Source of the DNA: Inmirania thermothiophila
GTDB lineage: Bacteria > Pseudomonadota > Gammaproteobacteria > DSM-100275
Assembly (NCBI RefSeq): GCF_003751635.1
Contig: NZ_RJVI01000002.1
Coordinates: 793,986 to 857,985 of the forward strand
Direction of reading: 5' to 3'
Length of the DNA stretch: 64,000 nt
Shown here: positions 5,259 through 21,714 of the stretch, piece by piece
Layout of the letters: every line of letters begins with the position of its first letter
Position numbering within the stretch: the stretch's first letter is position 1
Notes under the pieces: model-generated
Seen by the model: only the letters and a program-made list of their open reading frames with translations
What the model was told of the DNA's origin: nothing
Database searches by the model: none
Made by a program: the position numbers and the translations under genes

Positions 5259-5488
5259 GACGCCCTCCTCCCCCCGGCCGTGCCGGGGCCGACAGTGGAT
5301 GACGCGCGGAGTCTGCCGCAGCGGGTGGCTCAGGAGGTGAGCCCGGCAGGGTTGCCGTGGCGGCCGCGCCCGGGCTTGGGGGGAGCCCGCCGCACGGCCT
5401 CCGGCAGCGACGGCGGGCGGTGTCGGGCCGGCACCCGGCGGCGCAGCGTCTATACTGGAGGGACCCCCTCCCCCCCGAGGCCTTCCCC

Positions 5489-6706
5489 ATGCACCACCCC
5501 ACAACGGCCGGGGCCGTGCCGGCACGGGCGCTTCCGCCCCTGCTCCGAACCTTCGTCGCCGCGGCCGTCGCCGCCGGGCTCGCAGCCGCGCCCGGCGGCG
5601 CCGACGCCGCGCTGTTGGAGCGTCTCAAGGAGAAGGCCGGAAAGGCCCTGGGGAGCGCGATCCCCGGCGGGCAGGGCAGCCGGCCGGAACCGGCAGGAGG
5701 CGGCACCGCCCCGGAGCCCGCGGCGACGGCCGCCGCCCCCCTCATCGGCTCGGTGGACCACCTCATGGCCCGCTGGCCCTACCGGACGCCCAAGGGCGGG
5801 CGGGCGGCGGCGGTGGCGCTGCGCGGCGTGCGTCTGGGGCAGCCCCTTCCGGAGGCCCACCGGGCCCTGCTGGAGGCCGGCTTCAGCCATGTCGACCAGG
5901 TCGGCGCCACCTACAACTACCGGATGCAGTACGTGGAGGCGGCGGGCGCGCGGCGGTGGGTGCCGCAGAGCGAGGTCTCCGCCCTCCGAAAGGAGCCCGG
6001 TTTCCGGGTGATCCGGACCCTGCACATGCGCATCGAGGCGGTCACCCCCTCGAAGGCGATCCTGGCGGAGCTCGCGCCCTACCCGGCGCAGCCGGCCCGG
6101 CCCCGGGGCGCGGGCGCAGCGACTGACGCCCGGTCGGCGCGGACGCGGCGTCCGCCCCAGCCCGCCTCCGGCCCGCGGCTGCCGCCGCAGCCCCTGTACG
6201 TGTCGGAGATCGTGTACCTGCAGCGCTTCATCTCCGGCGAGCAGGTGGACTGGCCGGCGCTGCTGCGCCAGGCGCGCGAGCGCTTCGGCGAGCCCAACTA
6301 CGCCCTCCCCGACATCCAGCGCCAAGGCGCCGCCTACAAGAGCTCCGGCGCCGGCTCCCTCTGGTATCTGGACGCGGCCCTGGAGGAGCCGGCGCGGATC
6401 CGGCGGATCCTCGCCACGGTGGAGCCCGATCGGCCGCAGTCCGACCTGAGGACCATGGTCTGGAAGGACATGATGCACCCCGGCATCTTCGCCAACGTGA
6501 GCTACGCCACCCAGGGCTTCGCCGGCTACGAGCAGGCCGTGGAGGCCATGCGGGTCGCGGGCGCCCCCTTCCTGGCCGTGACGCGGAGCAACGGGCTCAT
6601 GGTCCGGCTGAGCTGGCCGTTCCTGAAGTACGAGGCCTCGGCCCGCCGCATCCACGACGAGGCGCAGGCGCGCGGCGCCCGGCCGAAGGCGGACGTGCGG
6701 TTCTGA
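5489..6706 (+). CDS. Exported protein of unknown function
   Basis: This 405-residue protein is not recognised. It has an N-terminal export signal (hydrophobic LLRTFVAAAVAAGLAA followed by small residues ending near GADA), then a Pro/Gly/Ala-rich linker, then a globular region in two blocks separated by a second Pro/Arg-rich linker at about residues 195-230. Phrases such as VRLGQPLPEAHRALLEAG suggest repeats of a small periplasmic domain that reads a partner, but no family is evident. A TATACT -10-like hexamer lies at 5451-5456, about 30 bases before the ATG, with no clear -35. It is convergent with the WYL regulator. The antisense frame over the same stretch lacks any domain signature. Confidence 0.6.
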   Translation: MHHPTTAGAVPARALPPLLRTFVAAAVAAGLAAAPGGADAALLERLKEKAGKALGSAIPGGQGSRPEPAGGGTAPEPAATAAAPLIGSVDHLMARWPYRTPKGGRAAAVALRGVRLGQPLPEAHRALLEAGFSHVDQVGATYNYRMQYVEAAGARRWVPQSEVSALRKEPGFRVIRTLHMRIEAVTPSKAILAELAPYPAQPARPRGAGAATDARSARTRRPPQPASGPRLPPQPLYVSEIVYLQRFISGEQVDWPALLRQARERFGEPNYALPDIQRQGAAYKSSGAGSLWYLDAALEEPARIRRILATVEPDRPQSDLRTMVWKDMMHPGIFANVSYATQGFAGYEQAVEAMRVAGAPFLAVTRSNGLMVRLSWPFLKYEASARRIHDEAQARGARPKADVRF

Positions 6707-7685: not shown

Positions 7686-8111
7686 CGCCCCCTCCCGCAA
7701 GCCCGCCGCGGCCACATAGGCTCACCGGCCCATGAGCCCTGAGTCTAGACGGTCCGCCGGCCGCTTCCAGCACACGTCGCAGCGCGGCGGCAGTCCCACC
7801 GACGACGGTCGTGCCCCGCGGAAGCGGACCCGCCCCCCACGGCGGCGCACCTGGTGGCTCACCTCCTGAGCCTGCGCCACCCGAGAATCGGGCATGACCG
7901 CCCGGGCCCTGCGCCCGGGACGGCGCGAGGGCGCACGGCGGAGGTGCAGGCCTTGTTGCCATGCGGGGGTTGTGGAGATACTGGATCCGCCCGCCGCGAA
8001 CGGACGCCCGCGGCGTGGAGCACGGTGGCGGTGTGAAGGACCACGCAGCGCAGCACAAAGCAGGCCGAGGGCGGCAGACGGTCCCCGGGCGCCGTGCGGA
8101 GGCCCTGGGCC
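7686..8111. other. Divergent intergenic region between WYL regulator and cas3
   Basis: No gene is supported in these 426 bases. It holds a GTCTAGAC palindrome at 7743-7750 close to the regulator start, a GCCCGGG inverted pair near 7900-7920 and a possible cas promoter (see the next entry). It is the natural place for operators of the WYL protein. Confidence 0.6.
7956..7982 (+). promoter_or_regulatory. Possible sigma-70 promoter for the cas operon
   Basis: TTGCCA (5 of 6 to the -35 consensus) at 7956-7961 and GATACT (4 of 6 to the -10 consensus) at 7977-7982 are separated by 15 bases, which is short. It would leave a leader of about 120 bases before cas3. An alternative -35, TTGTTG at 7953, gives 18-base spacing. 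Confidence 0.3.
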
Positions 8112-10784
8112 ATGTCTGAGCCCCGGGCGGCCTCGGCCCGCCTCTTCTGGGGCAAATGCACGGAGGGGGGTCTTCTCCCCCTGAGCTGCCACGCTCTGGA
8201 CGTCGCCCTGACCTTCCGCACCCTGTGTGGCCTGCCGGGCATTCGGCGGGCGCTGGAGGCGGCGGCCGGGCGGCACCTCCATGCGCGCGACCTCGACCGG
8301 CTGGCCGTCCTCGCCCTCCTGCACGACGTGGGCAAGGCCAACCTCGGGTTTCAATACAAGGTCTTTCCCAACCCGCCCTTCAAGCACGCCAAGAGCGCCG
8401 GCCATGTCGCCGAGCTGGCGGCACTGTTCGACGACGCCCACCCGGAACTGAACCAGGCCTTTGCCCGCGCCCTGCAGGTGAAGGTGCTGTCCGGGTGGTT
8501 CGCCGAGGACGGGTGCGGTCTCGAGGCCTTTCTCCTCGCCACCTGGTCCCACCATGGCCGGCCGGTGTCGTTTGCCGGAAGCCTCGCCGGGCGGGCCGGG
8601 ACCTGGGCCCGCTATTGGCGCCCTTATCAGGGCCACGACCCCATGGCGGCGGTGGCCGAGCTGGTGGCCTGTGCCCGGAAGGCCTTCCCCGCCGCCTTCG
8701 AGCCCGGCGGTGTCCCCCTGCCGGAATCGCCCCGCTTCCAGCACCTCTTCGCCGGGCTGGTGATGCTCGCCGACTGGCTCGGCTCCCATCCCCACTGGTT
8801 CCCCGTCGAGGACGTGGATCCGGCCGCCCGCCTGGCGCACGGCCGCCGGGCCGCCGCGCGGCAGCTCCAAGCGGTGGGGCTCGATCCCGATCCCCTGCGC
8901 CCGGTGCTGGCGGGCGGACCGTCGGCGTTTCAGGGCCGCTTCCCCTTCGCCCCTCGTCCCCTGCAGCAGGCCGTGCACGAGCAGAACCCCGACGATTCAG
9001 CGACCCGCCTGCTCATCGCCGAGTCGGAGACCGGCTCGGGCAAGACCGAGGCGGCGCTCGACTGGTTCTTCACCCTCTTCGCCGCCGGCCGAGTGGACGG
9101 CCTCTACTTCGCCCTGCCCACCCGGGTGGCCGCGCGCGAGCTCTACACGCGCGTGCAGGCCACCATGGCGCGCTGGTTCCCGGCCCCGACCCGCCGCCCG
9201 GTCACCGTCCTCGCCGTGCCCGGCTACGCCCAGGTGGACGGCCTGCCCGCCGAGCAGGTCCTGCCCCCGGCGGAGGCCGCCAACCTCTGGCAGGACGATG
9301 CACAGGAACGGCTACAGGAACGGGTTTGGGCCATCGAGCACCCCAAGCGCTTCCTCGCCGCCACCGTGGCGGTGGGCACCATCGACCAGGCCCTGCTCTC
9401 TGCTGTGCAGACCAAACACGCCCACCTGCGCGGGGCCTGCCTGGCCCGCAGCCTCCTGGTGGTGGACGAAGTGCACGCCTCCGACCGCTACATGAGCCGC
9501 CTGCTGGAGCATCTCCTCGAGCACCACCTCGCCCTGGGCGGATACGCCATGCTGCTCTCCGCCACCCTGGGTGCGGCCGCCCGCGAGCGCTACCTGGCGG
9601 TGGCCCGGGGGCAGAATCCGAACCGCGTCGGGCCCCCGCCCCTGGACGACTGCCAGCGCCTGCCGTATCCCCGCCTCACCCGCGCCGACGGCAGCGCCCG
9701 GCCTTGTGGCCGGGACGTGCGCGCCAAGGCGGTCGCGGTGGAGGAGGTGCCGCTGGCCTTCGCGCCCGAGGCCCTGGCCGAGCGCATTGCCGAGGCCCTC
9801 CGGGCCGGTGCCCGGGTGATGGTGGTCATGAACACCGTGGCCCGCGCCAACGCCCTGCACCGCGCCCTGGAGAGACAGGCGGACATGGATCCCGCCTGGG
9901 GCTTTCGCTGCGCGGGCGTCCCCTGTCCCCATCACGGCCGCTTCGCCCCCGAGGACCGCCTGCTGCTGGACGCCGCCGTGAGCGCGCGCCTGGGCAAGGA
10001 GGGACCGCGCGGGCCGGTGCTCCTCATCGGCACCCAGACCCTGGAGCAGAGCCTGGACATCGACGCCGATCTGCTGGTCACCGATCTTTGCCCGGCGGAC
10101 GTGCTCCTGCAGCGCATCGGCCGCCTGCATCGCCATAATCGATCCCGCCCGCATGAATTTGAACAAGCCTGCTGCCTCCTCCTGGTGCCCGAAGGGGACC
10201 TGCTCGGCGGCCTGGACGAACAGGGCTATGCCAAGGGCGAGTACCGTCGCATCGGCTGGGGTTTTGGTGCAAAGGGCGGCGGGATCTACGAAGACTTGCG
10301 TACCCTGGAGCTCACCCGCCGGGCCCTGGCCGTGACGCCCACCATCGAGATTCCCGCGGACAACCGCCGGCTGGTGGAGGAGGCCACCCACCCGGAATCC
10401 CTCGCCGCCCTCGAGGGGGAGGATGAGCGCTGGGCGCGACACGGCCAGCGCGTCCTGGGTGGTGACATCGTCAAGGGCCAGCAGGCCGAGGCCGTGGTCC
10501 TGCACTTCGACCGCTGCTTCGGCGATTTGGCCTTCAACGAGATGGGGCTGAAAGTGGCCACGCGCCTCGGCGCCGAGGCCCTGCGCCTGCCCCTGGACCG
10601 CCCGGTCACCAGCCCCTTCGGCCAGGCCCTGCACGAGATCACCATCCCCGAACACCTGGCCCCGGAACAGCCTGAAGAAAAAATCACCGTGGAGGATCAC
10701 GCGGACGGCGTCATCCACCTGCGCTGCGCCGGCGTCCGCTACACCTACTCCCGCCACGGCCTGGAAAAGAAGGAGGAACCATGA
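8112..10784 (+). CDS. cas3: CRISPR-associated helicase/nuclease Cas3 (type I-E)
   Basis: Cas3 is recruited by target-bound Cascade, unwinds DNA and degrades it. The 890-residue protein (E. coli Cas3 is 888) has an N-terminal HD nuclease with H27, H71-D72 in LLHDVGKAN and a WSHHGRP motif, then a superfamily-2 helicase with Walker A ETGSGKT near residue 308, DEVH near 451, SATLG, and motif VI in QRIGRLHRH. A C-terminal domain follows. The ATG at 8112 was chosen because the HD homology begins just after it. The stop overlaps the cas8e start (ATGA). No catalytic residue is obviously missing. Confidence 0.97.
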   Translation: MSEPRAASARLFWGKCTEGGLLPLSCHALDVALTFRTLCGLPGIRRALEAAAGRHLHARDLDRLAVLALLHDVGKANLGFQYKVFPNPPFKHAKSAGHVAELAALFDDAHPELNQAFARALQVKVLSGWFAEDGCGLEAFLLATWSHHGRPVSFAGSLAGRAGTWARYWRPYQGHDPMAAVAELVACARKAFPAAFEPGGVPLPESPRFQHLFAGLVMLADWLGSHPHWFPVEDVDPAARLAHGRRAAARQLQAVGLDPDPLRPVLAGGPSAFQGRFPFAPRPLQQAVHEQNPDDSATRLLIAESETGSGKTEAALDWFFTLFAAGRVDGLYFALPTRVAARELYTRVQATMARWFPAPTRRPVTVLAVPGYAQVDGLPAEQVLPPAEAANLWQDDAQERLQERVWAIEHPKRFLAATVAVGTIDQALLSAVQTKHAHLRGACLARSLLVVDEVHASDRYMSRLLEHLLEHHLALGGYAMLLSATLGAAARERYLAVARGQNPNRVGPPPLDDCQRLPYPRLTRADGSARPCGRDVRAKAVAVEEVPLAFAPEALAERIAEALRAGARVMVVMNTVARANALHRALERQADMDPAWGFRCAGVPCPHHGRFAPEDRLLLDAAVSARLGKEGPRGPVLLIGTQTLEQSLDIDADLLVTDLCPADVLLQRIGRLHRHNRSRPHEFEQACCLLLVPEGDLLGGLDEQGYAKGEYRRIGWGFGAKGGGIYEDLRTLELTRRALAVTPTIEIPADNRRLVEEATHPESLAALEGEDERWARHGQRVLGGDIVKGQQAEAVVLHFDRCFGDLAFNEMGLKVATRLGAEALRLPLDRPVTSPFGQALHEITIPEHLAPEQPEEKITVEDHADGVIHLRCAGVRYTYSRHGLEKKEEP

Positions 10785-12334
10785 ACCTGCTCACCGACCC
10801 CCTCGTCCCCGTCACCACCGCCCAGGGGCAAACGTTCGTCAACCTGCCCGCCCTGCTCGCCGGCCTGGGTGACGACACCGTCCGGCGCATCGACGGCCTC
10901 CAGCGCCATCAGGAAGACGCCTTCCACGTCTTCCTCTGCTACCTGGCCGGGGCGGTGCTGGCGCGCGACGGGGACTGGAACCCGGTACGCGACGAGGCCT
11001 TTTGGCGGGACGGGATGCGTTTCCTCGCCGGCGATGCAGGCGATGATGCTTGGCGGCTCGTGGTGGACGACCTCTCCCGCCCCGCCTTCATGCAGCCGCC
11101 CCTGCCCAAGGCAGACCACGGCAAGCTCAAGCTCCAGGCCGAGACCCCCGATGCCCTGGATCTGCTGCCCACCGCCAAGAATCACGACCTCAAGCAGGCC
11201 CGTGCCGCCCGAGCGCAGCCCCATGAGTGGCTCTACGCCCTGGTCAGCCTGCAGACCATGAGCGGCTATTTTGGCCGCGGGAACCCCGGCATCGCCCGCA
11301 TGAACAGCGGCTTCGGCAACCGACCCGTGGTGGAGGTGGCCCGCTCCCGGGAACAGGCGCCGCGTTGGCGGGACGTGGTCCTGCGGCTGGAGGCGCACCG
11401 CCGCCAGGTCCTGGCCGGCAGCCTCCCGTTCCGGGACGATGGTCTGGTGCTGGTCTGGCTGCGATTCTGGGACGGGAAGACCAGCTTGTCCCTCTCCGAG
11501 CTGGATCCCTTCTTCCTGGAGATCTGCCGTCGGGTGCGCCTGCAAGGAGACGGCGAGCAGATCACCCAGGCCGCGGGCCTGCCTTCCGATGCCAATCGGA
11601 TCGCCGCCAAGGAGCAGAACGGCCTGGTGGGGGACGCCTGGCTCCCGGAAGACCACTCGGACAAGAAAGGGGCCAAGGCCCTCACCGTGTCCGCCGACGG
11701 CTGGACGGCGGATCGCTTGCGGCGCCTCCTGTTCGAGGACGGCATCCGCCATACCCTCCTGCAGAAACCGGCGCCGGACTGGGAAGGAGACGTCTGGTTG
11801 CTGGCCTCCGTGCTGGTGCGCGGGCAAGGCACCACCGACGGCTTCCACGAGCGCCACCTCCTCATCCCCGCCCAGGTGAAACGGCGACTCTTCGCACCCA
11901 AGCCGCAAGTCGATCCCCTGGCCGCGCTGGCCAAAGAGGCCGTCGAGCTCGCCGGCCTCATGCAGAACCGGGTCTTGAAACCTGCGGTGCTCGTGCTCGC
12001 GCAGGGTGCACCGGAGAAACTCGCCTTCGACGACGACACCACCAGCGCTTGGTGGCAACGTTTCGCGGCGCGCTTCGGCAACCGTTGGTCCGACGAGTAT
12101 TTCCCCTGGCTCTGGTCCCTGCCCGACCCTCTCGATCGGGCCGAGGCGCGGCTCGATTGGGCTCGGCGCCTCAAGGCGCACGCCGAGACCGTCCTGCACG
12201 AGGCCGAACGGATCCTGCCTCAGCACACCGGCCGCCTCTGGCATGCCCGCGTCGCCGCCCGGCGTGCTTTCAACGGCGCCCTCTACAAGCACTTCCCCGA
12301 CCTCAAGGAGGCCCGTCATGAACGCATCGCCTGA
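10781..12334 (+). CDS. casA: Cascade large subunit Cas8e (Cse1/CasA)
   Basis: Cas8e is the large subunit of Cascade, which reads the PAM and recruits Cas3. The 517-residue protein opens with MNLLTDPLVPVTT, typical of Cse1 (NLLTDPWIPV-like), and carries family segments such as DAFHVFLCYLAGA and LVSLQTMSGYFGRGN. Length is close to E. coli CasA (about 502). Its start overlaps the cas3 stop by four bases and its end overlaps cas11 by 17 bases, consistent with one tightly coupled operon. Confidence 0.93.
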   Translation: MNLLTDPLVPVTTAQGQTFVNLPALLAGLGDDTVRRIDGLQRHQEDAFHVFLCYLAGAVLARDGDWNPVRDEAFWRDGMRFLAGDAGDDAWRLVVDDLSRPAFMQPPLPKADHGKLKLQAETPDALDLLPTAKNHDLKQARAARAQPHEWLYALVSLQTMSGYFGRGNPGIARMNSGFGNRPVVEVARSREQAPRWRDVVLRLEAHRRQVLAGSLPFRDDGLVLVWLRFWDGKTSLSLSELDPFFLEICRRVRLQGDGEQITQAAGLPSDANRIAAKEQNGLVGDAWLPEDHSDKKGAKALTVSADGWTADRLRRLLFEDGIRHTLLQKPAPDWEGDVWLLASVLVRGQGTTDGFHERHLLIPAQVKRRLFAPKPQVDPLAALAKEAVELAGLMQNRVLKPAVLVLAQGAPEKLAFDDDTTSAWWQRFAARFGNRWSDEYFPWLWSLPDPLDRAEARLDWARRLKAHAETVLHEAERILPQHTGRLWHARVAARRAFNGALYKHFPDLKEARHERIA

Positions 12335-12821
12335 AGATCTCGCCCATATCATCGCCCACGTGGCCGGCACCCTGGCCAGCGAGCACTTCCCCACCGGCGA
12401 GCGTGCCGCGCTCCGGCGCATGAGCCCCGGGCAGCCCCCGCCTCTCTACTTCTACCGCTTCGCCCTGCGCCACCTGCCCGGGAACTGGGAGGCCGTGGAG
12501 GCGGACTGGGTCACCCTTACCGCCGGCATGGCTCTCATGGCGCCGAACGCGCACCGGCCGGGATTCAGCCTGGGCACGGCCCTGGGCGAGGCGGGCTACA
12601 GCGAGGGGCGAATGGAGCGCCTGCTGCAGAGCGACGGCGACACCCGCCGCATCTTGTTCCTGCGCGCCGTGCGCTTTCTTGCCGCCAAGGCCCAGCCCTT
12701 CGACTGGCTGGACGGCGCCCGCCTGCTCCTCACCCGGGATGCAAAAAAGCGCGAAGGCGTGCACCGGCGCATCGCCCGCGATTTCTACACCCTCGTCGAT
12801 CAACAGAAAAAATCCGCCTGA
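12318..12821 (+). CDS. casB: Cascade small subunit Cas11 (Cse2/CasB)
   Basis: Cse2 is the small subunit that lines the R-loop in Cascade (two copies per complex in E. coli). The 167-residue product is helical, with GERAALRRMSPGQPPPLYFYR matching the Cse2 core in position and style, and a C-terminal stretch ending VDQQKKSA. I chose the ATG at 12318 because a GGAGG ribosome-binding site lies 6-7 bases before it; the open frame continues upstream inside cas8e, but that extension is out-of-frame shadow. Length fits the family (about 160). Confidence 0.88.
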   Translation: MNASPEDLAHIIAHVAGTLASEHFPTGERAALRRMSPGQPPPLYFYRFALRHLPGNWEAVEADWVTLTAGMALMAPNAHRPGFSLGTALGEAGYSEGRMERLLQSDGDTRRILFLRAVRFLAAKAQPFDWLDGARLLLTRDAKKREGVHRRIARDFYTLVDQQKKSA

Positions 12822-12835
12822 CAAGGAGAAGCCCC

Positions 12836-14008
12836 ATGTTCCTGCAGATCCACTTCCTCACCAGCTACCACGCCACCCTCTTGAACCGCGACGACGCGGG
12901 CCTGGCCAAGCGCATCCCCTTCGGCGGCGCCGAGCGCCTGCGCGTCTCCAGCCAGTGCCAGAAGCGCCACTGGCGCGAGTGGCTCATGGCGCAGACCTAC
13001 CTGCCTTCCGGCCTGCGCACACGGGAATTCTTCGGCCGGGAAGTGAAACGGCGCCTGGTGGAGGGCGGCATGGACGAGACGCTGGCCCACGCCCTCATCC
13101 TGCACTTGGCCAAGGCCCTGCTCACCGCCGCCGGCGAGAAGGACGCGGTGGACAAGAAGACACTGGCCATGAAGCAGCCGGTGCTGTTCGGCAGGCCGGA
13201 GGCGGATTTCTTCGTCTGGCTCATCCAAGAGGCCGCAAAGCAGGGAGACGAGAAGGCGGCGAGCGCGTGGTTCGACGAGCAGCTCAAGGCCGGCAAGAAA
13301 AACCTCAAGGCCCTCATGAACCAGGCCGGGGCCCACAACCTCGCCGCCGGCTTCGAGGGGGCCCTGTTCGGGCGTTTCGTCACCTCCGACATCCTCACCC
13401 GCCTCGACGCGCCCGTGCACGTGGCCCACGCCTTCACCACCCATGCGCTCGACACTGAGGTGGACTTCTTCACCGTGGTGGATGACCTCAACAAGGACGA
13501 GGAGACCGGCGCCGCCCACGCCGGCGACATGGAGCTGGGCGCGGGCATCTTCTATGGCTACGTGGCGGTGGACGTGCCCCTGTTGGTGTCCAACCTGACC
13601 GGCGCGGACGCCAAGGACTGGCGGAAACAGGACCACGCCGACGCCCGGAATCTCCTGGAACAGCTCATCCGCGCCATCGCCCAGGTCTCCCCCGGCGCCA
13701 AGCGGGGTGCCACCGCCCCCTACGCCCACGCCGAATGGATGCTGCTGGAGGTGGGCGAGACCCAGCCCCGAAGCCTGGCCAATGCCTACCTGCAGCCGGT
13801 GAAGCTCTCGGAGCGGATCCACCCCCTGGCCCAGTCCGCCGAGGCGGCGGCCGAATATCTCACCGGCATGGAGGCGATGTACGGAAAGGACCACACGGGA
13901 CGGTGGGTCTCCAGCCGTCACCCCTGGCCCCGCGCGGCCGAGCCCGTCCTGCCCCTGCCCGAGGCCGTCGGGCAGGCCCTGGACCGCATCTTCGGTGCCG
14001 CATCATGA
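12836..14008 (+). CDS. casC: Cascade backbone subunit Cas7e (Cse4/CasC)
   Basis: Cas7e forms the six-copy crRNA-binding backbone of Cascade. The 390-residue protein starts MFLQIHFLTSYHATLLNRDD and continues with PFGGAERLRVSSQCQKRHWR, the RAMP-type signature of the family. Later segments RFVTSDILTRLDAPVHVAH and HAFTTHALDTEVDFFTVVDD are also typical. It is slightly longer than E. coli CasC (363). A CAAGGAG ribosome-binding site precedes the ATG, 14 bases after cas11. Its stop overlaps the cas5 start (ATGA). Confidence 0.95.
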   Translation: MFLQIHFLTSYHATLLNRDDAGLAKRIPFGGAERLRVSSQCQKRHWREWLMAQTYLPSGLRTREFFGREVKRRLVEGGMDETLAHALILHLAKALLTAAGEKDAVDKKTLAMKQPVLFGRPEADFFVWLIQEAAKQGDEKAASAWFDEQLKAGKKNLKALMNQAGAHNLAAGFEGALFGRFVTSDILTRLDAPVHVAHAFTTHALDTEVDFFTVVDDLNKDEETGAAHAGDMELGAGIFYGYVAVDVPLLVSNLTGADAKDWRKQDHADARNLLEQLIRAIAQVSPGAKRGATAPYAHAEWMLLEVGETQPRSLANAYLQPVKLSERIHPLAQSAEAAAEYLTGMEAMYGKDHTGRWVSSRHPWPRAAEPVLPLPEAVGQALDRIFGAAS

Positions 14009-14745
14009 AGGCCCTGATCCTGCGCCTGGATGCGCCGCTCATGAGCTTCGGCGGCGTGATAATCGACCAGCACGGCTTCACCGAGCGCTTCCCCGGCAAG
14101 AGCCTGCTCACGGGCCTGCTCGCCAACGCCCTGGGCTGGCGCCACGGTGATTTCGAGCGTCTGCAGGCCTTGCAGGCACGGCTCGAATACGCCGCCCGCT
14201 GGGACGTGCCACCCGAACGCCTGGTGGACTACCACACCGTGGACCTGGGCCAGCCCAAGATGCGCGAACCGGGTTGGACCACGCGCGGCGAGGTGGAGCA
14301 TCGCGCCGGTGGGCCGGACGCCCGCTACGGCACCCACATCCGCTACCGCCACCACTGGGCCGACGGCCTCATGACCGTCGCCCTCGCCCTCACCGGGGAG
14401 GGCGAGCCGGACCTGGAGACCGTGCGCCAGGCCCTGACCCGCCCCGCCCGGCCGCTGTTCCTCGGCCGCAAGGCCTGCCTGCCCGCCCGCCCCCTGCTCG
14501 ATCCCGAGCCCATGCGCCAAGGGCCGGATCTGCTGGCCATCCTGCGCGCCGTGCCCCGCTGGGACCGGCACGGCCGGCCGCGGCAAGACACCGGCGTTGA
14601 GAAGATGGAGGCCTGCTGGCCCGCGGACCTCGGCATCCCCGAAGGCACGCGCGGCGAGATCCGCCGCGTCTACGACCTGCGTGACTGGCCCAACCAGCTC
14701 CCGGCCGGAAGCCGGGAGCGGGCCGAAGGCATCCTCGGAGGCTGA
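14005..14745 (+). CDS. casD: Cascade subunit Cas5e (CasD)
   Basis: Cas5e caps the 5-prime handle of the crRNA in Cascade. The 246-residue protein begins MKALILRLDAPLMSFGG, a standard Cas5 opening, and includes FPGKSLLTGLLANALGWRHGD, then RYRHHWADGLMTVALAL and RPLFLGRKACLPARPL, which match the RAMP core and C-terminal part of the family. The ATG at 14005 overlaps the cas7 stop; the longer upstream frame runs through cas7 and is rejected. E. coli CasD has 224 residues. Confidence 0.94.
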   Translation: MKALILRLDAPLMSFGGVIIDQHGFTERFPGKSLLTGLLANALGWRHGDFERLQALQARLEYAARWDVPPERLVDYHTVDLGQPKMREPGWTTRGEVEHRAGGPDARYGTHIRYRHHWADGLMTVALALTGEGEPDLETVRQALTRPARPLFLGRKACLPARPLLDPEPMRQGPDLLAILRAVPRWDRHGRPRQDTGVEKMEACWPADLGIPEGTRGEIRRVYDLRDWPNQLPAGSRERAEGILGG

Positions 14746-14747
14746 CC

Positions 14748-15482
14748 ATGGAGCCCCTTTACATGATCCAGTGCACCCTCGACTCCAAGGCCCTTATGAC
14801 CTTCGCCCGCGAGCAGGGCCTGGACCCCGGCCGCGACGAGCTGGACCTGGGCTACCTGGGACACGCCTGGCTCAAAGCCGCCTTCGGCGAACTCGCCCCC
14901 CGCCCCTGGCGCCTGCTCATGCCCCAGCGCCCCACCAGCCACCAGCCCAGCCGCATCCTCGCCTATTCCGACCACCCGGGCGAGGCCCTCGCCGACCACC
15001 TGGCCCGCTTCGCCACCCCTTCCGTGGCGGCGGTCTGCCCACCCGAGGCGGTTCTGGGCAAGGCGTTGCCGCAAGAATGGCCCGCGGGGCGGCGTTATGC
15101 CTTCGAAGCCTTGTGCTGCCCCGTGGGGCGCAAGGCCGGGTCGGGGCAGGAAAAAGACGTCTTCCTCATCGAGGCCGACCACGCCCCCCAGGCCCAACTG
15201 AAACGGGCCGAGGTCTACCAAAGCTGGTTCCGGAGACAAACAGAAGGGCAAGAAGGGCGCGTGCGGGTGGAAGAGGTCGCCCTGGAAGGTTTTCGCTTGG
15301 CCAAGATCCTGCGCAAGACGCAAGACAGCCCCCGAACATCGCATCACCGAGTGCGACCGCAGGCGCAGTTCCGCGGCGTCCTCCGGACCGAAGACGGCTC
15401 GGGGCTGATGGCCCTGTTGCGCCGCGGCATCGGCCGCCACCGCGCCTTCGGCTTCGGCATGCTCCTCCTGCGGCCGGCCTGA
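14748..15482 (+). CDS. casE: CRISPR RNA endonuclease Cas6e (CasE)
   Basis: Cas6e cuts the precursor transcript at the base of the repeat hairpin and stays bound to the 3-prime end of the crRNA. The 244-residue protein has two ferredoxin-like halves and a C-terminal glycine-rich loop, RRGIGRHRAFGFGMLLLRP, diagnostic of Cas6. It is longer than E. coli CasE (199); the extra residues lie mostly in the central PVGRKAGSGQEKDVFLIE to RQTEGQEGRVRVEE region. A GGAGG site sits just before the ATG at 14748; an internal ATG at 14763 is an alternative. Confidence 0.93.
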   Translation: MEPLYMIQCTLDSKALMTFAREQGLDPGRDELDLGYLGHAWLKAAFGELAPRPWRLLMPQRPTSHQPSRILAYSDHPGEALADHLARFATPSVAAVCPPEAVLGKALPQEWPAGRRYAFEALCCPVGRKAGSGQEKDVFLIEADHAPQAQLKRAEVYQSWFRRQTEGQEGRVRVEEVALEGFRLAKILRKTQDSPRTSHHRVRPQAQFRGVLRTEDGSGLMALLRRGIGRHRAFGFGMLLLRPA

Positions 15483-15485
15483 GCG

Positions 15486-16385
15486 ATGGGCCGCGGCAGC
15501 CTCTTCCCCGGACGGCTGGGTCTAGCCGAAAGCCGCGTCCCGCACGCGGACCGGCACGGCCTCCTGTGGCTCGTGCGCGGCAACCTCTACGTGCAGGAAG
15601 GGACCCTGCGCTTCCTCGCCGCCGCCAGCGACCTCTTCGAGCCCGGCGACTACGCCATCCCCTATCAGGCCGTCTCCATGATTCTCATGGGTCCCGGCAC
15701 CACCGTAAGCCACGACGCCCTGCGCATCCTTGCCCGCCACGGCACCCTGCTGGCGGCGGTCGGCGAGGGCGGGGTCAAGCTCTACACCGCCCCGCCCATG
15801 GGACAGGGCCGCTCAGAGGTCGCCCGCGCCCATGCCCGGCTATGGGCCGATGAGAAGGCCCGCCTGGACGTGGCCCGACGCATGTATGCCTTCCGCTTTG
15901 GCGAGGTCCTGCCCCACCGCGACATCACCGTGCTGCGCGGGATCGAGGGCGGGCGGGTGAAGGCCCTGTACAGGACCTGCGCCGAACGGTATCGCATCCC
16001 CTGGCGCGGGCGGCGCTACGACCGCCAGAACCCGGGCGCGAACGACATCCCCAACCAGGCGCTGAACCACGCGGCCACGTTCGTCGAGGCTGCGGCGGAC
16101 ATCGCAGTGGCCGCGGTCGGAGCCTTGCCGCCCTTGGGTTTCGTCCACGAGGACTCCAGCAACGCCTTCACCCTCGACATCGCCGACTTGTGGCGTGGCG
16201 AGCTGACCGTCCCCCTTGCATTCTCCGTCGCCCGCAGGGTGCTCGACGACCCTGATCTCGTGCTGGAGCGCGAGATCCGCTTCACCGCCGCAGGCTGGTT
16301 TCGCAAGAAGAAGCTGATCCCCGCGATGATCGACCGCATCAAGGAGCTGCTTCATGTCGACGATGACCGTGGTGGTGACTCGTAA
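15486..16385 (+). CDS. cas1: CRISPR integrase Cas1 (type I-E)
   Basis: Cas1 with Cas2 inserts new spacers at the leader end of the array. The 299-residue protein keeps the metal ligands of the family: E154 in LRGIEGGR, H221 in GFVHEDSS, and D231 and D234 in FTLDIADLW. Length matches E. coli Cas1 (305). It begins three bases after the cas6e stop and overlaps cas2 by 32 bases, the usual coupling for subtype I-E. The C-terminus ends in an acidic tail, HVDDDRGGDS. Confidence 0.97.
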   Translation: MGRGSLFPGRLGLAESRVPHADRHGLLWLVRGNLYVQEGTLRFLAAASDLFEPGDYAIPYQAVSMILMGPGTTVSHDALRILARHGTLLAAVGEGGVKLYTAPPMGQGRSEVARAHARLWADEKARLDVARRMYAFRFGEVLPHRDITVLRGIEGGRVKALYRTCAERYRIPWRGRRYDRQNPGANDIPNQALNHAATFVEAAADIAVAAVGALPPLGFVHEDSSNAFTLDIADLWRGELTVPLAFSVARRVLDDPDLVLEREIRFTAAGWFRKKKLIPAMIDRIKELLHVDDDRGGDS

Positions 16386-16704
16386 CGTCTCGCCGCGCAT
16401 GCGCGGCTTTCTCGCCTCCACCATGGTCGAGCTCGCCCCTGGCGTCTACAGCGCGCCGCGGCAATCGCCCGCCGTGCGCGACCGCATCTGGCACGTGCTG
16501 CAGGAATGGTTCGTACTGGAGCGGGACGCCTCCGTGGTCCTGCTCTGGGAGGAGCCAACCATGCCGGGCGGACAGGCCGTGAGGACGCTGGGGGTTCCGC
16601 CGGTCGATCTGTGCGAGGTGGACGGGCTGCTGCTGGCGCGTCGAAGGATGGACCCGGAAGCCGCCGCGGCCGGGTGGCTCAAAGCCTGCCGCGGAATCCG
16701 CTGA
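16354..16704 (+). CDS. cas2: CRISPR adaptation protein Cas2 (type I-E)
   Basis: Cas2 forms the dimer at the centre of the Cas1-Cas2 integration complex. The 116-residue protein is of the Cas2e (CT1978) type: MTVVVTRNVSPRMRGFLAS at the N-terminus and SPAVRDRIWHVLQEWF in the middle. It is somewhat longer than E. coli Cas2 (94-97), with a C-terminal extension after LCEVDGLLLARRR. It is the last gene before the array; its stop lies 61 bases from the first repeat. Confidence 0.95.
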   Translation: MSTMTVVVTRNVSPRMRGFLASTMVELAPGVYSAPRQSPAVRDRIWHVLQEWFVLERDASVVLLWEEPTMPGGQAVRTLGVPPVDLCEVDGLLLARRRMDPEAAAAGWLKACRGIR

Positions 16705-16765
16705 GTCTCTGGACTCGTCGCTCTTTCAAAAGAGGTCGCGTACAATCATGGAGTTGCATGCTAGG
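16705..16765 (+). promoter_or_regulatory. CRISPR leader with IHF-like site
   Basis: Only 61 bases separate cas2 from repeat 1. AATCATGGAGTTG at 16744-16756 fits the IHF consensus WATCARNNNNTTR with one mismatch (T for R at position 6) and ends nine bases before the repeat. In E. coli, IHF bends the leader to guide Cas1-Cas2 to the first repeat. A TACAAT hexamer at 16741-16746 could be a -10 element for array transcription, but no good -35 is visible. A CTCTTTCAAAAGAG near-palindrome lies at 16721-16734. Confidence 0.6.
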
Positions 16766-18351
16766 GTCTCCCCCGCACACGCGGGGATCGACCGCTGACG
16801 AGCTTGCGGATGAAGAGTGGGACCGAGTCTCCCCCGCACACGCGGGGATCGACCTTCGCCGCGCCCTGGCCCGCAGCCCGGGCTGGTGTCTCCCCCGCAC
16901 ACGCGGGGATCGACCTAGCTCGTCCATCGCTCCCCTTTCTGCGGGCTAGTCTCCCCCGCACACGCGGGGATCGACCCCGGTGGGCCCGATCAGGCAGGGG
17001 CGCAGCCGCGTCTCCCCCGCACACGCGGGGATCGACCGCGCGCGCTGCCGCCGCGGGGGCTACTGGACCCGTCTCCCCCGCACACGCGGGGATCGACCGC
17101 GTCCGAGACTGCACAGCTGCGAGCTGCACGCGTCTCCCCCGCACACGCGGGGATCGACCTAGCTAGTAGATAGTAGTAGATGGTGTCGAATGGTCTCCCC
17201 CGCACACGCGGGGATCGACCTGGGCGGCCGAGGCCACCAAGCGGCCCGTTCTTGTCTCCCCCGCACACGCGGGGATCGACCTAGGGTGAGGGCGACCGAG
17301 AGCTGTTCCCCGGTGTCTCCCCCGCACACGCGGGGATCGACCCCAAGTAGATCTGCTCCAGGCCATCGTCCGGCAGTCTCCCCCGCACACGCGGGGATCG
17401 ACCGCAGTCGCGCCGCCTGGATAACACCCGCCTTGAGTCTCCCCCGCACACGCGGGGATCGACCTGTGCGCTGCCTCATGCAGCAGCAGGGTCACCCGTC
17501 TCCCCCGCACACGCGGGGATCGACCTTTATATGGGGATGGGTGGAGGAGAAGGACACCGTCTCCCCCGCACACGCGGGGATCGACCCCGAGGCAGGGAAA
17601 AGCCCATCCAGCGCCGCACGTCTCCCCCGCACACGCGGGGATCGACCCGGCACCGTGTTCCGCGGACGTGTCGACACCCAGTCTCCCCCGCACACGCGGG
17701 GATCGACCCGCGGGCTGGCTATCGACCGATCAGGCGCAGCGGTCTCCCCCGCACACGCGGGGATCGACCGACACCATTCTTTACTACCATTCCTTACTAC
17801 AGGTCTCCCCCGCACACGCGGGGATCGACCCTGGTAGAAGAAGGACTGACGAAGAGCAATCTTGTCTCCCCCGCACACGCGGGGATCGACCTCAATGACT
17901 TGTTGTCGCTTGTGACACATGTGAGTCTCCCCCGCACACGCGGGGATCGACCAGCGCGCGCGGACGGAAGCTGGGGTCGGTGCCAGTCTCCCCCGCACAC
18001 GCGGGGATCGACCCAGCGACAGCCACCGGCTCTCGCTGCGCGAGGCGTCTCCCCCGCACACGCGGGGATCGACCGTTCGGCCAGGGGAAGATCCCCGATC
18101 CGCGGCTGTCTCCCCCGCACACGCGGGGATCGACCGCCGGTGCGTATGATCAAGGCGGATCCCGTAATGTCTCCCCCGCACACGCGGGGATCGACCGCGA
18201 TGGCTGCGACGTTTTCCAGGAAGACGTATGTCTCCCCCGCACACGCGGGGATCGACCTGTGCCGGCGCATCGGGGGCTCGCCTATATCGTGTCTCCCCCG
18301 CACACGCGGGGATCGACCTCGTGTGACAGGTGGCTTCTCCGACCTGTCACA

Positions 18352-18379
18352 GTCTCCCCCGCACACGCGGGGATCGGCC
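18352..18379 (+). repeat. Variant CRISPR repeat (handle change)
   Basis: This copy has G instead of A at repeat position 26 (18377), inside the region that becomes the crRNA 5-prime handle. The two neighbouring repeats are canonical. Confidence 0.95.
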
Positions 18380-19815
18380 CAGCACGGGCTTCGCGCTCAC
18401 GGTCAAGACCTCGTCTCCCCCGCACACGCGGGGATCGACCTAAATTGGTGCCCATCCAGGAACGCCAGCAGTAGTCTCCCCCGCACACGCGGGGATCGAC
18501 CCGCCGGGCTCGACGACATCCTCGACAAGTACTGGTCTCCCCCGCACACGCGGGGATCGACCCATCTTGTCGGCCATCCTGGGCACCCCGGTGAAGTCTC
18601 CCCCGCACACGCGGGGATCGACCTTGATCGAGCCGTCCTCCTTGATCAGGCAGTCGGTCTCCCCCGCACACGCGGGGATCGACCCCGCGCAGAGATGCGC
18701 TGCGGATCAACCTTTTGGTCTCCCCCGCACACGCGGGGATCGACCCTACGTCGGAGGAGTGTTGGTCAACGCGCGCAGGTCTCCCCCGCACACGCGGGGA
18801 TCGACCGATATTCACGTCCCGTGCCCCTTCCGTATACAAGTCTCCCCCGCACACGCGGGGATCGACCCGCGCGCGGGTCCGCTCCGTATTTCGCGCGCAG
18901 GTCTCCCCCGCACACGCGGGGATCGACCCCAGAGCCTCGGCGAGACCTGGGAGGACCGCTCGTCTCCCCCGCACACGCGGGGATCGACCTCGGCGAGCGC
19001 CTCGCCGGCGATCTCCAGCGTCGTCTCCCCCGCACACGCGGGGATCGACCCAGCACCGGGACGACCACCTACACTGTGGGCACGTCTCCCCCGCACACGC
19101 GGGGATCGACCCGTGCCGGCGCATCGGGGGCTCGCCTATATCGTGTCTCCCCCGCACACGCGGGGATCGACCCGGGCATGCTTCCAGTTCCTTTCGCGCC
19201 GGCGCGTCTCCCCCGCACACGCGGGGATCGACCCCAGAGCCTCGGCGAGACCTGGGAGGACCGCTCGTCTCCCCCGCACACGCGGGGATCGACCCCTCAA
19301 GGAGCTGCGGAAGGAGGAGCGCTGATGGTCTCCCCCGCACACGCGGGGATCGACCCGCCACGGGCTGGGCATGCATGTGCGAGCCGCAGTCTCCCCCGCA
19401 CACGCGGGGATCGACCGCAAAGTACCTGGAATCCGCGATAAACGACCGCGTCTCCCCCGCACACGCGGGGATCGACCGTGCGCATCCATCGTAAGGGGAT
19501 GCCTGTGAGGGTCTCCCCCGCACACGCGGGGATCGACCCCTCGTCCGTGCCCCACACGCCCGTGGTAAAGAGTCTCCCCCGCACACGCGGGGATCGACCG
19601 CAGTTCGGAGGCGCCGCCGTCCGCGCATCGTCGTCTCCCCCGCACACGCGGGGATCGACCCGCCACGGGCTGGGCATGCATGTGCGAGCCGCAGTCTCCC
19701 CCGCACACGCGGGGATCGACCGCGGTCATTCAGCTCGCACCGGACCTGCTCGTAGTCTCCCCCGCACACGCGGGGATCGACCTGTCCTGTTTGCACAGAA
19801 AAGACGGGAGAAGTA

Positions 19816-19843
19816 GTCTCCCCCGCACACACGGGGATCGACC
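19816..19843 (+). repeat. Variant CRISPR repeat (stem change)
   Basis: Repeat position 16 (19831) is A instead of G. This breaks the loop-closing C-G pair of the Cas6e hairpin, so this copy may be cut less well. Confidence 0.95.
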
Positions 19844-20425
19844 CGCGGCGATGATGGTCTCCTCCACCTCCTCCGCGTCTCCCCCGCACACGCGGGGATC
19901 GACCCCGGCTGCATGGCGGCGACGATGATGGTCTCCGGTCTCCCCCGCACACGCGGGGATCGACCCTCGACAAAGCTGGCGGGGAGCAGCTTTCTGTTGT
20001 CTCCCCCGCACACGCGGGGATCGACCGTGAGCGATGCTTGGGCGGTGGATTCGGAATGTGTCTCCCCCGCACACGCGGGGATCGACCTGGTGCCGAATGG
20101 TGCTGTAGTAAAGAATGGTGGTCTCCCCCGCACACGCGGGGATCGACCCCTTCACCTTGTGCAGCTTGGGCCGTGGCTTGGGTCTCCCCCGCACACGCGG
20201 GGATCGACCCTATGCGCGAGTCGGTCCGTATCGTGCTGGAGGGTCTCCCCCGCACACGCGGGGATCGACCGGCCACCCGGACGCTCGGGCCGGTCTTCAT
20301 CGAGTCTCCCCCGCACACGCGGGGATCGACCCGCCGGGCTCGACGACATCCTCGACAAGTACTGGTCTCCCCCGCACACGCGGGGATCGACCCCTGTGGG
20401 GTGGGTGGCCGAGGGCGCCGGCCTC

Positions 20426-20453
20426 GTCTCCCCCGCATACGCGGGGATCGACC
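20426..20453 (+). repeat. Variant CRISPR repeat (loop change)
   Basis: Repeat position 13 (20438) is T instead of C, in the 4-base hairpin loop (ATAC instead of ACAC). The stem is intact. Confidence 0.95.
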
Positions 20454-21097
20454 CGTATACAGTCTGAACCTGCTACAGATGCTGAAGTCTCCCCCGCACA
20501 CGCGGGGATCGACCGCACCCCCGCGTCGCCGCTGCCATCGCCGCCATGTCTCCCCCGCACACGCGGGGATCGACCCGGCTGGATGAGCGGGAAGATGTTC
20601 ATGGTCGGGTCTCCCCCGCACACGCGGGGATCGACCGCAGGCGCAGCAGCACAGGGTCCATGTGCGGCCGTCTCCCCCGCACACGCGGGGATCGACCTGG
20701 GGCGGTTTCAACCCCTGCAAGGCCAGGACGGTCTCCCCCGCACACGCGGGGATCGACCGCACCCCCGCGTCGCCGCTGCCATCGCCGCCATGTCTCCCCC
20801 GCACACGCGGGGATCGACCCTCACCCCCGGAAGCCCGTCGTGGTTTGCGGTTGTCTCCCCCGCACACGCGGGGATCGACCCCAGCGACAAATCAAACACT
20901 TGACAGCTGTCAAGTCTCCCCCGCACACGCGGGGATCGACCCCGGCGGTTTCACCGCCCGGCCGAGGAACCCGCGTTCGTGAAAAGCCCGTGGGCGGGCC
21001 GCGCCGGTGCCGGCTGCACCGGGCCCGAGGCGCCACCGCGCAGCGCACGGCAACCCTGCCGTGCGCCGCTTGGGGCGGCCTGCTCGTCGGGCCGGTG

Positions 21098-21298: not shown

Positions 21299-21374
21299 TG
21301 GTGGGCCGTCAGGGACTCGAACCCCGGACCTACTGATTAAGAGTCAGCTGCTCTACCAACTGAGCTAACGGCCC
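21299..21374 (-). tRNA. tRNA-Lys (CTT)
   Basis: A 76-base cloverleaf with encoded CCA. The acceptor stem GGGCCGT/ACGGCCC is perfect, the T-arm contains GGTTCGAGTCC and the anticodon loop reads CTCTTAA, giving anticodon CTT. It is last in the four-tRNA cluster. Confidence 0.95.
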
Positions 21375-21423
21375 CGAAGAGACCCGGAAGGATACCCGCA
21401 GCACGGCGCGGGCATCAAGGTCT

Positions 21424-21500
21424 TGGGGTGAGCGATGGGACTCGAACCCACGACAACCGGAACCACAATCCGGGGCTCTACCGACTGAGCTACGCTCACC
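21424..21500 (-). tRNA. tRNA-His (GTG)
   Basis: The anticodon loop reads TTGTGGT (anticodon GTG). The extra 5-prime G (position -1) and a C at position 73 are the identity marks of tRNA-His. CCA is encoded. The acceptor stem GTGAGCG/CGCTCAC is perfect. Confidence 0.95.
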
Positions 21501-21530
21501 ATCGCCTGTGTCTGCCGCCACCCGGAGAGG

Positions 21531-21607
21531 TGGCACGCCCGGCAGGACTCGAACCTGCAACCGTCGGCTTAGAAGGCCGATGCTCTATCCGGTTGAGCTA
21601 CGGGCGC
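21531..21607 (-). tRNA. tRNA-Arg (TCT)
   Basis: A 77-base cloverleaf with encoded CCA; the anticodon loop reads CTTCTAA, giving anticodon TCT. The T-arm contains GGTTCGAGTCC. The acceptor stem GCGCCCG/CGGGCGT has one G-U pair at its end. Confidence 0.94.
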
Positions 21608-21637
21608 ATGGTGCAGCTCCTGCGCGGGCGGGAACGG

Positions 21638-21714
21638 TGGTCGGGGTAGAGGGATTCGAACCCCCGACATCCTGCCCCCAAAGCAGGCGCGCTACCAGAC
21701 TGCGCTATACCCCG
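21638..21714 (-). tRNA. tRNA-Pro (TGG)
   Basis: A 77-base cloverleaf with encoded CCA; the anticodon stem-loop CTGC-TTTGGGG-GCAG gives anticodon TGG. The acceptor stem CGGGGTA/TACCCCG is perfect. It is first in the minus-strand cluster Pro-Arg-His-Lys. Confidence 0.95.

What the first reader, a model, noticed from the sequence alone, without database searches (positions are those of the whole stretch)
16766..20941. Base after each CRISPR repeat is almost never A
I counted the base directly after all 68 repeats followed by a spacer: C 33, G 18, T 16, A 1. In E. coli I-E the equivalent 29th repeat base derives from the PAM and is always G. Here that base varies but A is nearly absent, so it may be a PAM-derived position with a C/G/T preference, or Cas1-Cas2 may favour it. 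Every spacer is 33 bases, consistent with 32 plus a variable repeat base.
Basis: partly seen in the sequence, partly recalled or inferred. Interest (0 to 1): 0.65.

Follow-up and report, generated by a model that had tools for sequence, protein, structure and literature searches.

The report
PAM-derived first spacer base, rarely A
In this bacterium's CRISPR memory, the first letter of each stored virus fragment is almost never A, most likely because it is the last letter of the short tag (AA followed by C, T or G) that the capture enzyme reads on virus DNA, and relatives of the enzyme show the same rule with changes in the contact residues that may explain it.

Summary
The count is exact: 69 repeats of 28 nt, 68 spacers, all 33 nt, first base C33 G18 T16 A1. 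After removing duplicates A is 1 of 64 against 11.5 expected (P=5e-5). The bias replicates: in 27 arrays with an unfixed 29th base (the window and relatives), A starts 51 of 1501 spacers against 307 expected (P=1e-84). The locus is a complete type I-E system. No protospacer was found for the window's own spacers, but relatives of the same Cas1 clade have them. Salinibacter ruber (54% Cas1 identity): 10 spacers hit Salinibacter phages, 9 preceded by AA, first base matching in 10 of 10. Sister-class genomes with an unfixed base (59-60%): 4 of 4 near-perfect hits preceded by AA, first base matching. So the first spacer base is the -1 position of an AAN PAM, as in E. coli (AAG), but with a different allowed letter. 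Rare A-starting spacers look like one-nucleotide register slips. Cas1 co-varies: Lys211, which contacts the -1 partner in E. coli, is present in all 10 fixed-G systems compared and none of 29 others. AAY and AAN PAMs are already described for I-E, so this is a relaxed variant, not a new kind.

The parts
16766..20941 (+). CRISPR array: 69 repeats of 28 nt (61-bp period) and 68 spacers of 33 nt
   Evidence: only array of this repeat in the genome
16794..16794 (+). first example (G) of the variable 29th position; it recurs every 61 bp (16794, 16855, 16916 ...), 68 times: C33 G18 T16 A1
17953..17985 (+). spacer 20, the only one that starts with A (AGCGCG...); readable as AA|G captured one base early
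   Evidence: slip pattern in relatives
18258..18290 (+). spacer 25, identical to spacer 39 except for first base T
19112..19144 (+). spacer 39, identical to spacer 25 except for first base C
16705..16765 (+). leader region between cas2 and the first repeat (61 bp)
   Evidence: sequence; role inferred from its position as in other I-E loci
8094..10784 (+). cas3 (HD nuclease and helicase)
   Evidence: NCBIfam TIGR01587 and TIGR01596 above cut-off
10781..12334 (+). cas8e/casA
   Evidence: TIGR02547, 180 bits, cut-off 70
12306..12821 (+). cas11/casB
   Evidence: TIGR02548, 77 bits, cut-off 28.5
12836..14008 (+). cas7/casC
   Evidence: TIGR01869, 274 bits, cut-off 178
14005..14745 (+). cas5e/casD
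   Evidence: TIGR01868, 147 bits, cut-off 69
14748..15482 (+). cas6e/casE
   Evidence: TIGR01907, 50 bits, cut-off 45
15486..16385 (+). cas1e; E. coli Lys211 -> Ser, Tyr188 -> Glu, Tyr217 -> Leu, Lys224 -> Arg; short acidic C-terminus in place of the E. coli PAM-binding tail
   Evidence: TIGR03638, 305 bits, cut-off 216; alignment
16354..16704 (+). cas2e, overlaps the end of cas1
   Evidence: TIGR01873, 81 bits, cut-off 33

Best explanation
[quoted passage not shown] As in E. coli, the third PAM base travels with the prespacer and lands directly after the 28-nt repeat, so each unit is 28 nt of repeat, 1 nt from PAM position -1 and 32 nt of spacer. In E. coli that letter is read strictly as G. 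Here the reading is relaxed to 'not A' (C over G and T), so the apparent 29th repeat base varies, and A is missing because AAA sites are not captured or are cut in another register. The relaxation belongs to a Cas1 clade that has lost Lys211 (contact of the -1 partner base in E. coli) and the E. coli-type PAM-binding C-terminal tail. Shown: the bias, its recurrence in relatives, AA plus a templated first base in relatives, and the Cas1 differences. Inferred: that the same PAM holds in the window's own system, that selection happens at Cas1-Cas2 capture, and that residues 188/211 and the tail cause it.
For: Exact counts and P values in the window. A-depletion in every well-sampled relative: 2/124, 4/139, 2/119, 0/81, 8/182; pooled 51/1501 against 307 expected, P=1e-84. 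Protospacers: Salinibacter ruber SP73 (Cas1 54% identical), 10 spacers on Salinibacter phages, 9 AA|C and 1 TA|C, first base matching 10/10; AA background 4.4%, P=6e-12. Sister-class genomes with an unfixed 29th base (Cas1 59-60%): L075_119, L075_6, L075_24 and L073_1, 1-3 mismatches, all AA|C with matching first base; AA background 5.6%, P=1e-5. Weaker: L129_112 AA|T. A-starting spacers have T in second place in 55% against 27% expected (P=3e-5) and A in 6%, so their second base behaves like the normal first base: 1-nt slips. Lys211 present in 10/10 fixed-G systems and 0/29 others. E. coli: last repeat base comes from the PAM G (PMC10011333); Lys211 and Ile291 contact C28, the partner of that G (PMC6395717).
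Against: No protospacer of the window's own 64 spacers was found in phages, plasmids, the own genome, eight related genomes or (about ten spacers plus the 25/39 pair, exact matches only) IMG/VR, so the PAM is carried over from relatives at 54-60% Cas1 identity. All strong protospacers have C at -1; AAT has one weak hit and AAG none. Some weaker hits show AG instead of AA, and one spacer that hits its own genome shows CG|G. The loss of Lys211 is one or two evolutionary events, so its association is confounded with ancestry. Counts cannot separate capture bias from later selection by Cascade.
Confidence: 0.83

Rival explanations
1. Cas1-Cas2 recognises only AA and is indifferent to the next base, but in runs of A it always cuts after the last A, so A never comes first (register rule, no reading of the -1 letter).
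For: Explains missing A without a -1 pocket; A-starting spacers do look like register slips; AA is the conserved part in protospacers.
Against: It predicts that C, G and T follow their frequencies after AA. In the window G is 17 against 28.6 expected and C 30 against 12.4; in L076 G is 3 against 55. Close relatives L010 and L034 have no G at all in 41 spacers. So the letter itself is read.
Confidence: 0.1
2. The letter is not chosen at capture but afterwards: spacers with an AAA PAM are acquired but do not protect (or are not gained by priming), so cells carrying them are lost.
For: Natural arrays are filtered by selection, and the PAM is also read in interference. Priming gives more canonical PAMs than naive capture (PMC10011333).
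Against: The bias is not weaker in the leader-proximal, younger half of the arrays (A 20 of 744 against 31 of 758 in the older half, P=0.15). The preferred letter changes with Cas1 residues 188/211. Neither point is decisive, since Cas8e was not compared.
Confidence: 0.2
3. The base is a decaying 29th repeat base, copied from the previous repeat and mutated, not taken from the target.
For: In more distant relatives the base is fixed and reads as part of the repeat (L014-L016).
Against: The other 28 repeat bases are nearly invariant (3 substitutions in 69 copies) while this one is a three-letter mixture; neighbours are independent; protospacers in relatives match the base 14 of 14.
Confidence: 0.02
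4. Chance or composition of the spacers.
For: The window is 75% G+C and A is rare in it.
Against: Expected 11.5 A at the measured A content of the spacers, P=5e-5, and replication in 27 arrays, P=1e-84.
Confidence: 0.001

Closest known systems
Type I-E CRISPR-Cas of Escherichia coli K-12 (PAM AAG, 29-nt repeat)
   Same: Same gene set, 61-bp unit, 33-nt capture with the third PAM base placed after the 28-nt repeat (PMC10011333)
   Different: Third PAM base is C/G/T instead of fixed G; Cas1 lacks Lys211 and the E. coli-type C-terminal tail
Type I-E systems with AAY PAM (Gardnerella vaginalis, Lactobacillus casei; Table 1 of PMC4246573; L. salivarius self-targets, PMC11288051)
   Same: PAM third base is a pyrimidine, A excluded
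   Different: There found in Actinobacteria and Firmicutes by computation; here G is also accepted in the window (27%) and the arrays belong to one Cas1 clade; the Cas1 of those species was not compared here
Type I-E repeat cluster with AAN PAM (Klebsiella), and AAC/AAT clusters, in the PAM catalogue of Vink et al. 2021 (PMC8482600)
   Same: Relaxed or different third PAM base in I-E
   Different: The passages read give N without an exclusion of A and without a link to Cas1 residues
Salinibacter ruber SP73 plasmid pSR118 I-E system (L146)
   Same: Same Cas1 clade (54% identity), AA then C, first base from the PAM in 10 of 10 protospacers
   Different: Third base nearly fixed as C (87 of 95)

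Membership tests
Type I-E CRISPR-Cas | cas3, cas8e, cas11, cas7, cas5, cas6e, cas1e, cas2e in one operon next to an array | tested here: met
   NCBIfam matches for all eight, coordinates 8094-16704, array from 16766
Type I-E CRISPR-Cas | 28/29-nt palindromic repeat with a CCCCGC...GCGGGG hairpin and 61-bp unit | tested here: met
Type I-E CRISPR-Cas | PAM with AA at -3/-2 | tested here: inconclusive
   Met in relatives of the same Cas1 clade (13 of 14 close protospacers); no protospacer for the window itself
E. coli-like AAG I-E | 29th base fixed as G | tested here: not met
   C33 G18 T16 A1
E. coli-like AAG I-E | Cas1 Lys211 and PAM-binding C-terminal tail | tested here: not met
   Ser at 211, tail LLHVDDDRGGDS; Lys and a longer tail in all 10 fixed-G relatives compared, E. 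coli-like in most
AAY I-E (pyrimidine at -1) | -1 base C or T only | tested here: not met
   17 of 64 unique window spacers start with G; nearly met in relatives L010, L034, L068, L076
AAN I-E (any base at -1) | all four bases accepted at -1 | tested here: not met
   A 1 of 64 in the window, 51 of 1501 in the pooled arrays

The most novel reading that the evidence does not exclude
Cas1 positions 188 and 211 (E. coli numbering), together with the C-terminal tail, form a readable code for the third PAM base in type I-E: Lys211 with a tail gives G; Glu188 with Ser/Ala211 gives 'anything but A'; another residue at 188 with Ser211, or Glu188 with Pro211, gives C. The PAM of an unstudied I-E system could then be predicted from Cas1, and changed by exchanging these residues.
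Probability: 0.35. Interest if true: 0.62.

Novelty: new variant of a known kind. Interest (0 to 1): 0.42.

Why it matters
It shows that the third PAM letter can be read off an I-E array without any protospacer, from the composition of the first spacer base, and that this letter drifts between G, C, C/T and C/G/T across Cas1 relatives while AA stays. It offers a concrete residue-level hypothesis for how Cas1-Cas2 reads that letter, testable in laboratory E. coli. Spacer databases that trim or keep this base inconsistently will misplace PAMs by one position in such systems.

Tried and rejected
Window spacers against phages, plasmids, own genome and eight related genomes: only chance-level hits (29 nt at 93%, E about 0.2). 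MuA-like protein of a protospacer-bearing contig against IMG/VR: no relative. Overlapping spacers inside the array, to read PAMs from each other: only weak similarities. L076 against phages and plasmids, L078 against phages, L086 against plasmids: no match; Bifidobacterium array against phages: array-like matches only. Inverted insertion as the source of A-first spacers: last-base composition gives no support. Search by family or order gave no further genome, since only the window's own genome is held there.

Full report
OBSERVATION. The array at 16766-20941 has 69 repeats of 28 nt and 68 spacers of exactly 33 nt; the base after the repeat is C33 G18 T16 A1. Without exact duplicates it is C30 G17 T16 A1 against 11.5 A expected from the rest of the spacers (P=4.7e-5). 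The next lowest A count of any position is 5. The repeats themselves are nearly invariant (three single substitutions), and neighbouring first bases are independent. One pair of spacers (25 and 39) is identical in 32 bases and differs only here (T, C).

CONTEXT. The array follows a complete type I-E operon, cas3-cas8e-cas11-cas7-cas5-cas6-cas1-cas2, on the same strand. It is the only array with this repeat in the 2.6 Mb genome, and no spacer has a target elsewhere in that genome.

RELATIVES. Cas1 relatives were found in genome contigs, in whole genomes and on plasmids, and their arrays were parsed by script. Three classes appear. (i) 28-nt repeat, variable 29th base, A-poor: the window, L009-L012, L034, L052, L068-L070, L072-L076, L082 and the arrays of genomes G412, G419 and G375. 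(ii) the same clade with the base mostly or wholly C: L014, L050, L077-L081, L084-L088, Salinibacter L146. (iii) a distant clade with the base fixed as G: L015, L016, Acidiphilium, Acetobacter, Roseomonas, Streptomyces albus, Thermus, Synechococcus, Paracoccus, Vibrio. In class (i), A starts 51 of 1501 unique spacers against 307 expected (P=1e-84). G is also avoided in part of the class: 0 of 41 in L010 and L034, 3 of 139 in L076.

IS THE BASE FROM THE TARGET? For the window's spacers no target could be found. For relatives it could. The L075 array searched in 48 sister-class genomes gave near-perfect protospacers: L075_119 (GGAA|C), L075_6 (TGAA|C), L075_24 in three contigs (ACAA|C); L073_1 (AGAA|C) was found on a contig fetched later. 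All have AA directly 5' of the 33-nt match and the first base matches. The contigs carry phage-like genes, by my reading of the translated frames (adenine methylase and integrase on L119; a 710-residue MuA-type transposase on L121), not by a family search. Salinibacter ruber SP73, in the same Cas1 clade, has 10 spacers that match sequenced Salinibacter phages with 0-4 mismatches: nine read AA|C, one TA|C, and the first base matches in all ten although other positions differ. AA is 4.4% of dinucleotides there (P=6e-12). So in this clade the 33-nt spacer begins at PAM position -1 and the PAM is AAN, as in E. coli where the G of AAG becomes the last repeat base (PMC10011333).

WHY NOT A? If only AA were read, the first base should follow the letters found after AA. 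It does not: in the window C is 2.4 times over and G 0.6 times that expectation, A 0.07 times; in L076 G is 0.05 times. Hence the -1 letter is read, loosely. The rare A-starting spacers are informative: their second base is T in 55% against 27% expected (P=3e-5) and A in 6%, that is, it resembles the usual first base. They look like capture one base too early, A|A|Y. The one A-first spacer with a (weak) protospacer reads GAAA|ATC. Position 2 is mildly A-poor as well (12% against about 20%), partly but not wholly explained by dinucleotides; I have no explanation for the remainder.

CAS1. In the E. coli structure C28, the partner of the PAM's G, is contacted by Lys211 and by the backbone of Ile291 in the C-terminal tail, and T29 by Gln287 (simulation of crystal structures, PMC6395717). 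Lys211 is kept in all 10 fixed-G systems compared and in none of the 29 others, and most fixed-G Cas1s keep an E. coli-like tail, which the window clade replaces by a short, often acidic end. Within the Lys211-less set, Glu188 with Ser/Ala211 never goes with a fixed C (0 of 15), any other combination usually does (12 of 14). The tree shows few independent changes: about one or two for Lys211 (Bifidobacterium L154, Asn211 with G and T, is a possible second, on a long branch) and about three for the fixed C. The association is therefore a hypothesis, not a proof.

KNOWN OR NEW. AAY PAMs were reported for I-E of Gardnerella and L. casei (Table 1 of PMC4246573), and AAN, AAC and AAT clusters in the catalogue of PMC8482600. 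A relaxed third PAM base in I-E is thus known. What I did not find described is the 'not A' form with C, G and T together, its persistence over a Cas1 clade spanning several phyla, the register-slip signature of the exceptions, and the link with Cas1 residues 188/211 and the tail. The literature search was limited to open papers.

LIMITS. The window's own PAM is inferred. Strong protospacers show only C at -1. Capture and later selection cannot be separated from natural arrays. Names of the sister-class genomes were not available; from one single-contig 4.7 Mb member I suspect Magnetococcia, from memory only.

Noticed in passing
window 18258-20791 (spacers 29/59, 36/41, 43/48, 62/66, 25/39): Five single spacers occur twice at distances of 4 to 30 units, without block duplication; repeated capture of the same prespacer seems more likely than recombination.
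   Followed up: partly
window spacers 17, 55 and 7 (17770-17802, 20088-20120, 17160-17192): Spacers share GTAGTAAAGAATGG-type repeats, 17 and 55 on opposite strands, as if from a repeat-rich region of one invader.
   Followed up: partly
window spacers 26 and 68 (18319-18351, 20881-20913): Spacers contain inverted repeats (TGTGACAGG...CCTGTCACA; TTGACAGCTGTCAA), possibly operator or origin sites of a phage.
   Followed up: no
pooled arrays with a free 29th base, spacer position 2: The second spacer base is also A-poor (12% against about 20%), beyond dinucleotide expectation.
   Followed up: partly
L038 (IMGVR_UViG_3300020045_011830) about 5480-6437: A viral contig carries a small degenerate I-E-like array (GATTCCCCCGCACACGCGGGGATTGACC) whose units differ from each other.
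   Followed up: no
L135:17070-17102 and L136:14954-14974 (genome G412): Spacer L090_19 matches its own genome with 1 and 3 mismatches and CG instead of AA upstream: a tolerated self match.
   Followed up: partly
L011 array, spacers ATACCCTTGACAATTGC.. and ATACTCTTGACAATAGC..: Two divergent spacers apparently from the same site both start with A, so the A exceptions of that array are one site.
   Followed up: no
window 21299-21714: Four tRNA genes (Lys, His, Arg, Pro) on the minus strand directly behind the array.
   Followed up: no
L154 (Bifidobacterium longum plasmid) array: I-E system outside the window's Cas1 clade, with Asn at Cas1 211 and a 29th base of G12 T9 A1 C1: a different relaxed preference.
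   Followed up: partly
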